This document shows, piece after piece, positions 41,014 through 45,936 of a DNA stretch of 64,000 nt. Position numbers and translations under genes: made by a program. The stretch lies in the NCBI RefSeq assembly GCF_000607165.1, contig NZ_JFZG01000006.1:62001-126000 (forward strand), read 5' to 3'. The DNA comes from Ralstonia pickettii. GTDB lineage: Bacteria > Pseudomonadota > Gammaproteobacteria > Burkholderiales > Burkholderiaceae. Below the pieces are notes generated by a model, which worked only from the letters and a program-made list of their open reading frames with translations, was not told the DNA's origin and searched no databases. Position 1 is the first letter of the stretch; every line of letters starts with the position of its first letter.

Positions 41014-41134
41014 GCTCTTTTTCGGCTGAGGGCGACCCTTCGCGTTGCCCCTCACCCACGCTGGCGCACTTCCGCCTGGAAGCTCGCCAGCGTTGTGCTA
41101 AGATTGCAGCCAATCTGTTTCTCCGAGCGTTCGC

Positions 41135-41202
41135 TCGACCTTTCCCCCTCCCCCCGTTTCTCGTTTCGCCGCCCGTTCGGGCCCTTCCCTCATCTTTCGT
41201 CT
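41135..41202 (+). promoter_or_regulatory. Pyrimidine-rich leader of rho (possible rut site)
   Basis: The last 65-70 bases before the rho start are almost only C and T with scattered G and very little A. Unstructured C-rich RNA is what Rho binds, and rho is autoregulated by attenuation in its leader in E. coli. The assignment as a rut site is inference from composition. Confidence 0.45.
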
Positions 41203-42465
41203 ATGCATCTGACAGAACTGAAATCCTTGCACGTGTCCCAATTGCTGGAAATGGCGGGGCAGTTGGAGATCGATAACGCCCAACGCATGCGCAAACAGGA
41301 ATTGATGTTTGCCATCCTGAAAAAGAAGGCGAAACAGGGGGAAACGATTTTCGGTGACGGCACACTTGAAGTGCTGCCCGACGGCTTCGGTTTTCTGCGC
41401 TCGCCGGAAACCTCGTATCTGGCCAGCACCGACGACATCTATATCAGCCCGTCACAGATCCGCCGATTCAATCTGCACACCGGCGACACCATCGAAGGTG
41501 AAGTCCGCACGCCCAAGGATGGCGAGCGCTACTTCGCGCTGGTGAAGGTCGACAAGGTCAACACGCAGCCTCCTGAGGCGGTCAAGAACCGCATCATGTT
41601 CGAGAACCTGACGCCGCTGCATCCGAACAAGCCGCTCACGCTCGAACGCGACATCAAGGCCGAAGAGAACATCACCGGCCGCATCATCGACATGATTGCC
41701 CCGATTGGTCGCGGCCAGCGCGCGCTGCTGGTGGCAAGCCCGAAGTCGGGCAAGACCGTGATGCTGCAGCACATTGCGCACGCCATCGCGACCAATCATC
41801 CGGAAGCCGAGCTGTTCGTGCTGCTGATCGACGAGCGCCCGGAAGAAGTGACCGAAATGCAGCGCACCGTGCGCGGCGAAGTGGTCGCCTCGACGTTCGA
41901 CGAGCCTGCCGTGCGTCACGTGCAGGTGGCCGAAATGGTCATCGAAAAGGCCAAGCGCCTGGTCGAACTGAAGAAGGACGTGGTGATCGTGCTGGATTCG
42001 ATCACGCGCCTGGCACGCGCCTACAACACCGTGGTGCCAACCTCTGGCAAGGTGCTGACCGGCGGTGTCGACGCCAACGCGTTGCAGCGTCCGAAGCGTT
42101 TCTTCGGTGCTGCACGTAACCTGGAAGAAGGTGGTTCGCTCACCATCATCGGCACGGCGCTGATCGAAACCGGCAGCCGCATGGATGACGTGATCTACGA
42201 AGAATTCAAGGGCACCGGCAACATGGAAGTGCACCTGGAACGCCGCCTGGCTGAGAAGCGCGTCTACCCTGCCATCAACCTGAACAAGTCAGGCACGCGC
42301 CGCGAAGAACTGCTGATCAAACCGGACATCCTGCAGAAGGTGTGGATCCTGCGTAAGTTCATCCATGACATGGATGAAGTCGAGGCAATGGAATTCCTGC
42401 TCGACAAACTCAAGACGACGAAGAACAACGCCGAGTTCTTCGACATGATGCGACGCGGTGGCTAA
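41203..42465 (+). CDS. rho: Transcription termination factor Rho
   Basis: Rho is a hexameric RNA translocase that ends transcription. The 420-residue protein has the N-terminal Rho domain ([21 protein letters not shown]), the cold-shock-like RNA-binding domain with GFGFLRS at 61-67, Walker A SPKSGKTV near 179-186, [14 protein letters not shown], Walker [17 protein letters not shown] and the Q/R loops in [14 protein letters not shown]. The start ATG at 41203 matches the family's usual length. It follows trxA, and its leader is strongly pyrimidine-rich. Confidence 0.98.
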
Positions 42466-42484
42466 GTCTCCTGCCTGCATAGCG

Positions 42485-42515
42485 AAAAGCGCACCCATTG
42501 TGGTGCGCTTTTTTA
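42485..42515 (+). terminator. Terminator of rho
   Basis: A ten-base stem (AAAGCGCACC pairing with GGTGCGCTTT, loop CATTGT) is followed by a run of Ts about 20 bases after the rho stop. Confidence 0.9.
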
Positions 42516-42732
42516 TTGCTGAGTCAACTGCCTGTTTTTCCAGCGGATTTTCTCGCCAAAGTTGTGAAATTCGCTAGTTCATTTGCATTACAGGGCTCGC
42601 GCGCAAGCGTTTGCTTCCATCGTCCTTAAACTTCATCGCAAAACAGAAACCCGGCAACCATACTGCAAGCCTGCCCTGGCCGAGCCGCCTCGGCAAAGAA
42701 CGAACCACACCAAGAATGGAACGGGGGAAACC

Positions 42733-43068
42733 ATGCGCGAAGAGTCGCTGGAATGTACTGCTGCGTGCCGAACCGTCGTGGTGGCGTCGCGCGCGGGGAT
42801 GGGGGAGATTGACGAGACGATTCTGGGTGCGGAGTGGCACGTGCGGCGCGTAACGTCGATGCGTGAACTGGGTTGCGCCATTCGCGACGGCGTTCCCGTG
42901 GCGGGGTTGGTCGATTTCAGCAGCGCGTTCTCGGCTGCGGAGCTGGATTTGCTCGAACGCTGCATGCAGGTCTCGCACGTGGGTTGGGTGGCAGCGCTGC
43001 CGCCAGCCATGCTGAACCACGAGCGCGTACGCCAGCTGGTGCGCGATTACTGCGTGGACTACGTCTAG
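42733..43068 (+). pseudogene. VpsR-type sigma-54 regulator, N-terminal part cut by an amber codon
   Basis: These 111 codons encode a receiver-like domain (REESLECTAACRTVVVASRAG to LVRDYCVDYV) that stops at TAG (43066-43068). The frame continues without shift into the AAA+ and DNA-binding parts of the same protein, starting at the very next codon. In VpsR-type proteins this domain runs on for about 25 residues into a helix matching the downstream EAAYSLRHAWGMASL. The stop therefore falls inside one domain, which points to a nonsense mutation or sequencing error. GGGGGAAA provides a good ribosome site before ATG 42733. The full frame would be 457 residues. Confidence 0.75.
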
Positions 43069-44106
43069 ATGCCGCTGCGTACGGACGAGGCTGCGTATTC
43101 GCTGCGTCACGCCTGGGGCATGGCATCGCTCGCCCAGGAAGCCACGCCGGCGCCCAAGGCAAATCATGCGCGCATGCTGGGTGAGTGCCCGGTCATGCAT
43201 AACCTGTTCCGCGCCATCCGCAAGGTCGCGCAGAACAGTGCGCCAGCCTTTATCGCGGGCGAGTCTGGCACCGGTAAAGAGCTGACTGCGCAGGCCATTC
43301 ACGAAGCTTCTTCGCGCGCAAGCGGGCCGTTCATCGCCATCAACTGCGGGGCGATTCCGCCGCACCTGATCCAGTCCGAATTGTTCGGCTACGAAAAAGG
43401 CGCATTTACCGGCGCGCATCAACGTCATATCGGCTGGGTCGAACATGCCAATGGCGGCACGCTGTTCCTCGATGAAATCGGCGACCTGCCGCTCGAGAGC
43501 CAGGTCAGCCTGCTACGTTTCCTGCAGCAAGGCACGATCACGCGGCTCGGCGGGCATCAGGCGATTCCGCTGGACCTCCGCATCATCTCGGCAACGCACG
43601 TGGATCTGGAAGCGGCCCAACATCACGGCGGATTCCGCACCGACCTGTTTCATCGACTGTGCGTGCTGACCTTGTCGGTGCCACCGCTGCGCGAGCGCGG
43701 CAGCGACATCGTGTTGCTGGCAGAACATATCCTCGCCCAGCACGCCAGCGAAGCGTCGCACCGCATCCGCGGGTTCACGCCCTGCGCGTTGCACGCGATG
43801 ATGCATTACCCATGGCCGGGCAACGTGCGCGAACTCATCAACCGCGTGCGCCGCGCGCTGGTGATGACCGACAACCGCAAGATCTCCGCCGCTGACCTGC
43901 ACCTCGAAGGCTATGCATCCGTGTCGGGCCAGACGCTGGAAGAAGCGCGCGAAGGCGCCGAGTCGGATGCCATCCGCACGGCCATCGCGCGCAACGGCTT
44001 CCATATGGGCATGACGGCGCGCGAATTGGCAGTGTCTCGCGTCACGCTGTATCGGCTGATGCAGAAGCACGGCATTCGGGCAGAGCATCCGCTGCATACG
44101 GCCTAG
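43069..44106 (+). pseudogene. VpsR-type sigma-54 regulator, AAA+ and DNA-binding part
   Basis: This 345-residue frame continues the preceding one after a TAG. It holds the last helix of the receiver-like domain and a complete sigma-54 AAA+ domain: Walker A GESGTGKE (64-71), the sigma-54-contacting GAFTGA loop (111-116), and Walker B GTLFLDEIGDL. A WPGNVRELINRVRRAL segment and a Fis-type helix-turn-helix near the end (MTARELAVSRVTLYRLMQKHGI) follow. The ATG directly follows the stop (TAGATG), so reinitiation could make a receiver-less, possibly constitutive activator. No strong ribosome site precedes it. Relatives activate exopolysaccharide or biofilm genes; the target here is unknown. Confidence 0.75.
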
Positions 44107-44134
44107 GCTCGGTCTCATCGGTTTGATTCCTCCA

Positions 44135-44163
44135 AGGGGCGTAGCAAGCGTGCTACGTCCCCT
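44135..44163. repeat. Long hairpin downstream of the VpsR-like gene
   Basis: AGGGGCGTAGCA pairs with TGCTACGTCCCCT around the loop AGCG, with one bulged base. No T-run follows on either strand, so it is not a standard terminator. It lies about 30 bases after the stop of the sigma-54 regulator gene. Confidence 0.6.
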
Positions 44164-44269
44164 AGACGTGTTCTTGGGAAAGCAGGGGGCGGCTGGACAG
44201 GGCCCACTTCCAGCACTGCTCATCCCATCCGACCTATCAATACTTGGTTCAGTACACTGAATTCTGCGG

Positions 44270-44298
44270 CTGGCGCCTGAAGGAACCGGAGGCGCCAG
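44270..44298. repeat. Perfect 9-bp inverted repeat
   Basis: CTGGCGCCT and AGGCGCCAG form a perfect stem around an 11-base loop. No T-run follows. It lies in the gene-poor region between the VpsR-like gene and the LuxR gene, close to the 3' end of the unrecognised ORF. Confidence 0.55.
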
Positions 44299-44312
44299 CG
44301 CTGCAAACGCTG

Positions 44313-44891
44313 TCAGATTGACTTGCATCGGGATCCCGCTCGAGGATGGCTATTGAGAAAAGAGTGCCCGCCGGGGGACGGAGCACGAAACCGTTGAACA
44401 GCCGCCATGTCGGGCTGTTCGGCGTACGTTGCGAAAGCGCCACATTTTGGTGCACCTAGGGCCGCGCAACCAGCGACAACCTTTGCCAAGAGACTGTTGC
44501 GGCGCAGGCAATCTGGCGCGGTAGCTGGCACATACCCGGCAGCACCCCACTTCCGGGGGGATTGCGCAAGCCACGTCGCCGTTGGATTGTTAAGCCACGC
44601 ATGCGACGTACTCAGTTCGCCGTCCGTGAGTGCGGACACGACAGAACAGGTGGATGGATCGAATGCGCGGGTGGGAATGAGACCGAATGCGAGTCGCGCC
44701 GGCAACGTATCGGCGAGAACGCTTCGAAGGGCGATCAGCAGCGTGATTGCACGCCGCACGACGAGATCCCCGTCTACCGCGAGCACCGGCATCATGACGA
44801 TCATGGCCGTGCGATTCGCGACCACTCCGGTCTTCTCGACCGTCCACCCGAACGGCAAACGTCGAGCACAGCGCTGCGCGATTGTCGGCAT
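44313..44891 (-). CDS. Unrecognised 192-residue ORF
   Basis: I do not recognise this protein. It is supported by a strong GGGGAGGAG ribosome site seven bases before ATG 44891 and by codon third positions that favour G/C in its first half, like its neighbours. The N-terminal half is hydrophobic in patches (TAMIVMMPVLAVDGDLVV, AITLLIALRSVLADTLPARLAFGL). The C-terminal half is rich in Cys, Pro and Ala and less protein-like. It runs opposite to the regulators on either side. A competing plus-strand frame (44407-44943) has no ribosome site. It may be a small accessory protein or a decayed gene. Confidence 0.4.
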   Translation of the reverse strand: MPTIAQRCARRLPFGWTVEKTGVVANRTAMIVMMPVLAVDGDLVVRRAITLLIALRSVLADTLPARLAFGLIPTRAFDPSTCSVVSALTDGELSTSHAWLNNPTATWLAQSPRKWGAAGYVPATAPDCLRRNSLLAKVVAGCAALGAPKCGAFATYAEQPDMAAVQRFRAPSPGGHSFLNSHPRAGSRCKSI

Positions 44892-45267
44892 GGCTCGCTC
44901 CTCCCCGACGGGTATAGAGCGACATCTATGCCATGACGGCTAACGCCTTGTTTTAACGGGATATTTTCCATACGGAGAAACGCCCAACCCGGCATGGCAT
45001 GCGATTTTTGTGTCGCGACTGAAACAGCTGTCGCCATAAAAACCGCTGTTAGTGGACGCGGGTTCTCCGGTGGTCGAATTGCTCGCCCTGGCAAACGCTG
45101 GGCTACAGTACCCAGAACGCAGCAATGAGGGTCCCGAGGCATGGCCGTGGCGCCTGTCATTTTTGACTTCCGCCACTAAAATGATTCGGAACGGGGGTCT
45201 GCTCCGGCCTGCATCTCGCCTGGGCGACAAGGATGTTCGCAAGATCGGTAACAGGTCGAGAACAACG
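44892..45267. other. Noncoding region upstream of the LuxR-type gene
   Basis: About 375 bases hold no recognisable gene. The stretch should contain the promoters of the divergent 44313-44891 ORF and of the LuxR-type gene. It is relatively AT-rich around 44941-45050 (for example TTTTAACGGGATATTTTCC), which fits a promoter region. A short minus-strand frame through it has no recognisable product. Confidence 0.5.
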
Positions 45268-45936
45268 ATGAACACTGTTTTGATCGAAGCCCATCCGTTG
45301 GTGCGTACAGGCATTGCGCACCTGCTACGGACGCTCAAAGGCGTCACTGGCGTCACAGTCGTCGAACCGGACGAAGGGATGTTCGACGCCATCGAAACCA
45401 ATGCCGACGCCGGTCTTCTTGTGATCGGCCTGCCGCTGCCACATCTGGACGAGTTGTCGGCCATCGGCGAGATCATGCACCGGCCGCACGCGCGCCACGT
45501 GGTCGTGCTGGCCGAATCCGAATCGCCCGACATCATCCGCACGCTCATGCAGATGGGCTTGTCAGGCTACACACTCAAGCACTCGCCGGGCGAAGTCATC
45601 GCAGCTTCGCTGGAGCTGGTTCTGGTGGGTGGTCAATACATTCCGGCCAGCGCGCTGCTGCCGGAATCACGCCTGGACGGCGCGCCCAACCCGGCGCTCG
45701 CGGGCGATCCGCAGACCGATCCGAAGCTGCTCGGCATTACGCCGCGGCAGTACGAGATTCTGGTGCTGCTCTCACGCGGGCATCCGGTCAAGACCATCAG
45801 CCGCATGCTGAACATCTCCGAGGCAACAGCCAAGGCGCATATCAGCACGCTGTATCGGCGCCTTAAAGTCCGTAGCCGCACCGAGGCCGTGTATGTCGCC
45901 AATCAGCGCGGTGCACGACTCCTCTCAGTCGCCTGA
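45268..45936 (+). CDS. LuxR/NarL-type regulator with atypical receiver domain
   Basis: The 222-residue protein has a receiver-like domain (1-130) and a LuxR-type helix-turn-helix (about 155-215, ITPRQYEILVLLSRGHPVKTISRMLNISEATAKAHISTLYRRL). The receiver lacks the phospho-acceptor: the canonical Asp before xxxP is Gly54 in LLVIGLPLPHL. The second residue of the acidic pair is Ala8 (IEAHPLVR), and the Thr/Ser switch position is Ala82. Lys104 is kept in GYTLK. It probably acts without phosphorylation. No sensor kinase lies beside it. The start ATG at 45268 has a weak site; it follows the VpsR-like locus and precedes mtfA. Confidence 0.88.
   Translation: MNTVLIEAHPLVRTGIAHLLRTLKGVTGVTVVEPDEGMFDAIETNADAGLLVIGLPLPHLDELSAIGEIMHRPHARHVVVLAESESPDIIRTLMQMGLSGYTLKHSPGEVIAASLELVLVGGQYIPASALLPESRLDGAPNPALAGDPQTDPKLLGITPRQYEILVLLSRGHPVKTISRMLNISEATAKAHISTLYRRLKVRSRTEAVYVANQRGARLLSVA

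What the first reader, a model, noticed from the sequence alone, without database searches (positions are those of the whole stretch)
42733..44106. VpsR-type sigma-54 activator split by one in-frame amber codon followed at once by ATG
Seen: two adjacent frames in the same phase are separated only by TAG, and the next codon is ATG. The stop lies within the receiver-like domain, because the next about 25 residues (EAAYSLRHAWGMASL) match the last helix of that domain in VpsR-type proteins. Downstream, Walker A, the GAFTGA loop, Walker B and the Fis-type helix-turn-helix are intact. A single C-to-A change at a Ser TCG codon would explain it. Two readings are possible: a loss-of-function allele, or an activator freed from its sensor domain through TAGATG reinitiation. 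The second would be a simple route to constitutive exopolysaccharide or biofilm gene activation.
Basis: partly seen in the sequence, partly recalled or inferred. Interest (0 to 1): 0.75.

Follow-up and report, generated by a model that had tools for sequence, protein, structure and literature searches.

The report
Regulator gene cut by stop codon
In one Ralstonia genome, a gene-switch protein that its relatives carry whole is interrupted by a single stop codon, most likely a recent loss-of-function mutation; the start codon that happens to follow might still allow a shortened protein to be made, but nothing shows that it is.

Summary
ATG 42733 to TAG 43066-43068 (111 codons) and ATG 43069 to TAG 44104-44106 (345 codons) are one phase, split only by TAG. 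The first piece is a VpsR domain cut at its last strand; the second is an intact sigma-54 activator core plus Fis-type helix-turn-helix. In the genus, 14 of 15 other held genomes carry the orthologue, each in one uninterrupted frame with a sense codon there; the 15th shows no rho match either, so it is uninformative. No tRNA with a CUA anticodon was found. No other gene nearby is shown to be broken. The ATG after the stop is a Met codon present in all 14 relatives, so TAGATG is not a conserved design; about 3% of this gene's codons are ATG. Best reading: a recent, strain-specific nonsense allele, or less likely a consensus error. Reinitiation is possible (0-nt spacing; ribosome site far weaker than the native one). 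A freed, constitutive activator is unproven. An intact VpsR-type paralogue sits beside glycosyltransferase genes, so the exopolysaccharide link of the broken copy is weak. Ordinary.

The parts
42733..43065 (+). First piece: VpsR-type (receiver-like) domain, 111 codons, without its last helix
   Evidence: PF20161 E 3.8e-19, positions 6-107/121; weak PDB match to V. cholerae VpsR 7y19, E 0.0054
43066..43068 (+). In-frame TAG, unique to this genome among the 15 Ralstonia genomes found to carry the gene (own included)
43069..44106 (+). Second piece: last helix of the VpsR domain, linker, sigma-54 AAA+ domain (Walker A, GAFTGA, Walker B), lid, Fis-type HTH; 345 codons plus stop, opens with ATG
   Evidence: Sigma54_activat 222 bits, AAA_lid_14 78.5 bits, HTH_8 27.4 bits
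42713..42732 (+). Ribosome-binding stretch of the native start, G-rich
   Evidence: Anti-SD duplex -8.6 kcal/mol; the ATG start is aligned in all 14 relatives
41095..42465 (+). Upstream neighbour rho, intact (context)
   Evidence: substitutions 3/0/33 by codon position against G001
45052..45936 (+). Downstream neighbour, response regulator with LuxR-type HTH, intact (context; true start probably further inside)
   Evidence: GerE above and Response_reg below its cut-off

Best explanation
A recent, strain-specific nonsense allele of an otherwise intact, conserved sigma-54 activator with a VpsR-type input domain. Translation from the native start ends at the last strand of the input domain. The 111-residue fragment lacks the last helix and probably does not fold stably (inferred). 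The full-length regulator is not made (inferred from the stop and the lack of a CUA tRNA), so its targets should lose normal control. A small amount of a 345-residue, sensor-free AAA+/HTH protein may arise by termination-reinitiation at the adjacent ATG (possible, not shown).
For: 14 of 14 informative same-genus orthologues (95-99% protein identity over the second piece) sit in one open frame of 507-515 codons without a stop, and all have a sense codon at this place. Both pieces align to them without indels, apart from three gapped bases in the second piece of 2 of 14. Of 24 VpsR-domain places in the genus, only this one has a stop inside. Branch-specific changes are as few as in sister species, and dN/dS of both pieces is low and close to that of intact pairs, so the stop is probably recent. 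49 tRNA places in the genome: none read as a CUA anticodon, one undetermined.
Against: One genome only: no second strain of this species and no reads were available, so a consensus error is not excluded. The second piece begins with an in-frame ATG at 0-nt spacing, so some activator core may still be made and loss may be partial. Its ribosome site (-3.0 kcal/mol) is weak beside the native start but lies within the range of the mechanically chosen starts of seven other window genes (-5.9 to +1.6; four of seven are weaker).
Confidence: 0.74

Rival explanations
1. The TAGATG junction frees the AAA+/HTH core: terminating ribosomes restart at the ATG and make a 345-residue activator that works without its input domain, raising expression of its targets.
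For: Spacing is 0 nt. In three E. coli gene pairs a 2-nt spacing cut coupled reinitiation by only 5, 20 and 70% (PMC10666635, passages). The core is complete, two sigma-54 genes are present, and the ribosome site is no weaker than the mechanically chosen starts of four of seven other window genes (some of those starts may be wrong).
Against: Not conserved in any of 14 relatives. Anti-SD duplex at the second ATG is -3.0 against -8.6 kcal/mol at the native start; 25 of 63 internal in-frame ATGs of seven window genes do as well or better. The 60-nt stretch folds at -19.4 against -9.9 kcal/mol at the native start (no wider background computed). In VpsR, D59A is inactive and D59E overactive (PMC7098655, passages), so removing the domain need not activate.
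Confidence: 0.12
2. The stop is a base-calling or assembly error and the gene is intact.
For: A single codon difference, unique to one draft genome of 38 contigs.
Against: Completeness 99.99, contamination 0.3. No other real gene shown to be interrupted over about window 20.4-64 kb against two related genomes.
Confidence: 0.11
3. The stop is read through (suppressor tRNA or recoding), so the full protein is made.
For: Both pieces look unrelaxed.
Against: No CUA-anticodon tRNA among the 49 tRNA places; one anticodon could not be called. The stop is not conserved.
Confidence: 0.02
4. Two separate, conserved genes (a stand-alone VpsR domain and a stand-alone activator).
For: None found.
Against: 14 of 14 informative relatives have a fused gene.
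Confidence: 0.01

Closest known systems
Intact orthologues in other Ralstonia (e.g. Ralstonia sp. A12, L001, beside rho)
   Same: Same place after rho, same domain order, 95-99% protein identity in the second piece
   Different: Uninterrupted; here split by TAG
BerB of Burkholderia cenocepacia
   Different: Intact and next to bep genes; c-di-GMP binding shown there, untested here; its paper reports no N-terminal input domain; BerB's sequence was not compared here
VpsR of Vibrio cholerae
   Same: Receiver-like N-terminal domain of the same Pfam family
   Different: VpsR lacks GAFTGA and acts without sigma-54 (PMC3162934 passages; PMC5552954 passages); this protein has GAFTGA
Translational coupling by termination-reinitiation
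   Same: Stop and start adjacent, a spacing at which coupling is known (PMC10666635 passages)
   Different: Known cases are gene pairs, most often with 4- or 1-nt overlaps; this junction is private to one genome

Membership tests
Sigma-54 enhancer-binding proteins | AAA+ domain with Walker A, Walker B and GAFTGA; Fis-type HTH | tested here: met
   (second piece)
Sigma-54 enhancer-binding proteins | Genome encodes sigma-54 | tested here: met
   Two PF04963 places over the cut-off, no stops
VpsR-domain regulators (PF20161) | Complete N-terminal VpsR domain in the same polypeptide as the activator core | tested here: not met
   On the first piece the match ends at position 107/121; a TAG lies inside the family match
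VpsR itself (V. cholerae) | No GAFTGA, sigma-54-independent | tested here: not met
   GAFTGA present from 43399; VpsR trait from PMC3162934 passages
BerB-like c-di-GMP effectors | Binds c-di-GMP | not testable with these tools
   -
Nonsense allele / young pseudogene | Premature stop where orthologues are intact | tested here: met
   14 of 14 informative relatives intact
Nonsense allele / young pseudogene | Relaxed selection after the stop | tested here: inconclusive
   Too few branch-specific changes
Termination-reinitiation gene pair | Spacing within about -8 to +10 nt | tested here: met
   0 nt; range from PMC10666635 passages
Termination-reinitiation gene pair | Stop-start junction conserved | tested here: not met
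Termination-reinitiation gene pair | Usable ribosome site before the second start | tested here: inconclusive
   -3.0 kcal/mol; 25 of 63 background ATGs as good or better, but four of seven mechanical gene starts are weaker

The most novel reading that the evidence does not exclude
The stop does not kill the gene but converts it: because the next codon is ATG, one substitution splits a sensor-activator into a dead input fragment and a coupled, sensor-free sigma-54 activator, an adaptive gain-of-function seen in one strain.
Probability: 0.1. Interest if true: 0.45.

Novelty: new member of a known kind. Interest (0 to 1): 0.2.

Why it matters
As it stands it is a warning for annotation: the second piece reads as a complete sigma-54 activator, although in every informative relative it is the C-terminal three quarters of a sensor-activator. 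If the reinitiated product were made and active, it would be a clean case of one substitution turning a regulated activator into an unregulated one.

Tried and rejected
Conserved two-gene design: rejected, 14 of 14 informative relatives are fused. Apparent loss in G003: not used as evidence, because a DNA search of the locus there gave no match to the rho part of the query either (40 of 152 candidates scored). Suppression: no CUA tRNA read. A generally bad assembly: of 31 ORFs of at least 100 codons in 40 kb of G001, 7 had stops in the window. Besides this gene, four are wrong-strand or non-coding by codon-position counts (for one of them only the non-overlapping tail was counted), one is antisense to rho, and one has its stop upstream of the first start of the window's own ORF. 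Of 33 such ORFs in 40 kb of G006, 5 had stops: this gene, one in a region already tested, and three low-identity (54-80%) ORFs not tested one by one. One more G006 ORF matched the window in two frames; the extra gap there is in G006 only, G001 agrees with the window, and the stretch shows no coding pattern. Direct exopolysaccharide link: neither of the two next genes downstream is a polysaccharide gene; the intact paralogue at L102 6090-7607 has such neighbours. Naming the species: the plasmid search listed no Ralstonia (its note says that near records may be left out); the only named Ralstonia among the 80 loci is sp. A12. Literature: VpsR + Ralstonia + sigma-54 held 2 papers and Ralstonia + sigma54-dependent + exopolysaccharide + c-di-GMP 9, none about this gene by title; a search for reinitiation after nonsense in response regulators held 0. 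Further searches: (listings only, save the papers cited). Seen but not used: PMC9684580 (passages), PMC4648390 (abstract and introduction, eukaryotic reinitiation). The first pairwise table was wrong for six unoriented loci and was replaced. The script stopped with an error after printing the ATG counts; the rest was redone. The promoter scan of 42300-45300 gave nothing at the second start and no more than chance.

Full report
What is there. Reading the window directly, ATG 42733 opens a frame that ends at TAG 43066-43068 after 111 codons; the next codon is ATG 43069, and that frame runs 345 codons to TAG 44104-44106. The two pieces are in the same phase. Pfam finds only the VpsR domain on the first piece (69 bits, profile 6-107 of 121). 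On the second it finds the sigma-54 AAA+ domain (222 bits), its lid (78.5) and a Fis-type HTH (27.4). GESGTGKE, GAFTGA and LFLDEIGD start at 43258, 43399 and 43462. The predicted structure of the intact orthologue of Ralstonia sp. A12 (mean pLDDT 80.9, pTM 0.60, 14 sequences) puts strand 5 of the input domain at residues 107-112 and its last helix at 117-136. The stop thus falls at the end of strand 5, and the last helix sits on the second piece. In the alignment of 14 relatives the ATG codon corresponds to the column before the invariant Pro at the strand 5-helix 5 turn, where the canonical receivers have Lys; the three nearest VpsR-type rows have Met, Thr or Leu. The Asp on strand 3 is invariant in the 14 rows, while the acidic residues that follow strand 1 in the canonical rows are missing in the Ralstonia row.

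Relatives. The second piece was searched in all 16 held genomes of the genus, own included: 14 of 15 others have an orthologue at 95-99% identity, each in one open frame of 507-515 codons without a stop. The miss, G003, gave no match to the rho part of the locus in a DNA search either, so its assembly probably lacks the region. On a DNA alignment of the locus, all 14 have a sense codon where this genome has TAG, and all 14 have the ATG codon that follows. The first piece has no gap against any of the 14; the second has none against 12 and three gapped bases against two. With the VpsR family, 24 places in 15 of 16 genomes were found, and only this one has a stop inside. In 299 genomes of the family searched the same way, 226 had a match; I saw no stop in the printed rows, but the list was cut by the tool and I did not count the rows.

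Age of the stop. Against three near relatives (L082, L083, L085; not exactly the three nearest), dN/dS is 0.05-0.12 for the first piece and 0.025-0.047 for the second. Among those three it is 0.05-0.10 and 0.01-0.03, so this genome's values are similar and, at their highest, slightly above. Changes unique to this genome, with all others agreeing, are 1 in the first piece (non-synonymous) and 1 in the second (synonymous), as few as in sister species. The gene was under selection until recently; the data cannot show selection after the stop. Substitutions against G001 are 12/3/53 by codon position.

Can the stop be passed or bypassed? 49 tRNA places were found in the genome. ARAGORN read their anticodons; none is CUA and one (L163) could not be called. 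Readthrough by a suppressor is therefore unlikely. Bypass by reinitiation is open. In three E. coli gene pairs, a spacing of 2 nt reduced coupled reinitiation by 5, 20 and 70% relative to the native overlap; 38 nt reduced it by 80-90% in two and abolished it in the third (PMC10666635, passages); here the spacing is 0. The stretch before the second ATG pairs with the 16S tail at -3.0 kcal/mol against -8.6 for the native start; 25 of 63 internal ATGs in seven genes of the window do as well or better; and the 60 nt around it fold at -19.4 kcal/mol against -9.9. Against this, the mechanically chosen starts of the same seven genes score -5.9 to +1.6 and four of the seven are weaker than -3.0, so the site is weak relative to this gene's own start but not outside the range of real starts (some of those starts may be misplaced). 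The ATG is an internal Met codon in all 14 relatives, so it most likely was there before the stop. Of the 455 codons considered in this gene 14 are ATG, so a stop placed at random would be followed by ATG about once in 33 times. The TAGATG motif needs no special cause.

What the second piece could do. It has all parts of a sigma-54 activator, and the genome has two sigma-54 genes. Whether removing a VpsR-type domain activates or inactivates is not known for this protein. In V. cholerae, vpsR-D59A is inactive and D59E overactive (PMC7098655, passages), which suggests a domain that must switch the core on; but VpsR lacks GAFTGA and is not sigma-54 dependent (PMC3162934, passages; PMC5552954, passages), so the comparison is loose. 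BerB of B. cenocepacia is a nearer functional model, RpoN- and c-di-GMP-dependent, and regulates the exopolysaccharide genes next to it (PMC5552954, section 18 and passages); its sequence was not compared here. From recalled general knowledge, some sigma-54 activators become constitutive when the input domain is removed and others become inactive.

Surroundings. Upstream is rho; downstream are a LuxR-type response regulator and a metallopeptidase M90 gene; neither downstream gene is a polysaccharide gene. A second VpsR-type sigma-54 activator (505 codons, intact, about 55% identical over the core) lies elsewhere on the same contig, followed by a GT87 glycosyltransferase and two acyltransferases, with a family 2 glycosyltransferase and another GT87 on the opposite strand. 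If a VpsR-type exopolysaccharide switch exists in this strain, that gene is the better candidate, and it may buffer loss of the broken one (inference).

Quality of the surroundings. Against 40 kb each of two related genomes (G001, G006), covering about window 20.4-64 kb, no other real gene is shown to be interrupted: the other ORFs with stops are wrong-strand, non-coding or start-extension cases where tested, and three low-identity G006 ORFs were not tested singly.

Verdict. The first, loss of function, is the better supported: a recent nonsense allele private to this genome among those held, or less likely a consensus error. The second, a freed activator, is possible in its first step (reinitiation) and unsupported in its second (constitutive activity) and third (exopolysaccharide targets). 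As a biological object it is ordinary.

Noticed in passing
L102:6090-13782 (G000 contig C6, about 618 kb): Intact second VpsR-type sigma-54 activator beside two GT87 glycosyltransferases, two acyltransferases and a family 2 glycosyltransferase; a second, lower-scoring VpsR place of this kind is found in 9 of 16 genus genomes.
   Followed up: partly
L101 (G000 contig C24, 145001-160000): A second sigma-54 gene (match 156518-157108) lies within a few kb of two sigma-54 activator genes (about 152.2-153.1 kb and 154.2-155.0 kb).
   Followed up: no
L163 (G000 contig C28, 47063-47196): tRNA-like gene of low score whose anticodon ARAGORN could not call.
   Followed up: no
G241 contig C2:180910-181272: A strong VpsR-domain match in an open frame of only 228 codons, much shorter than most rows; possibly a stand-alone or truncated form.
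   Followed up: no
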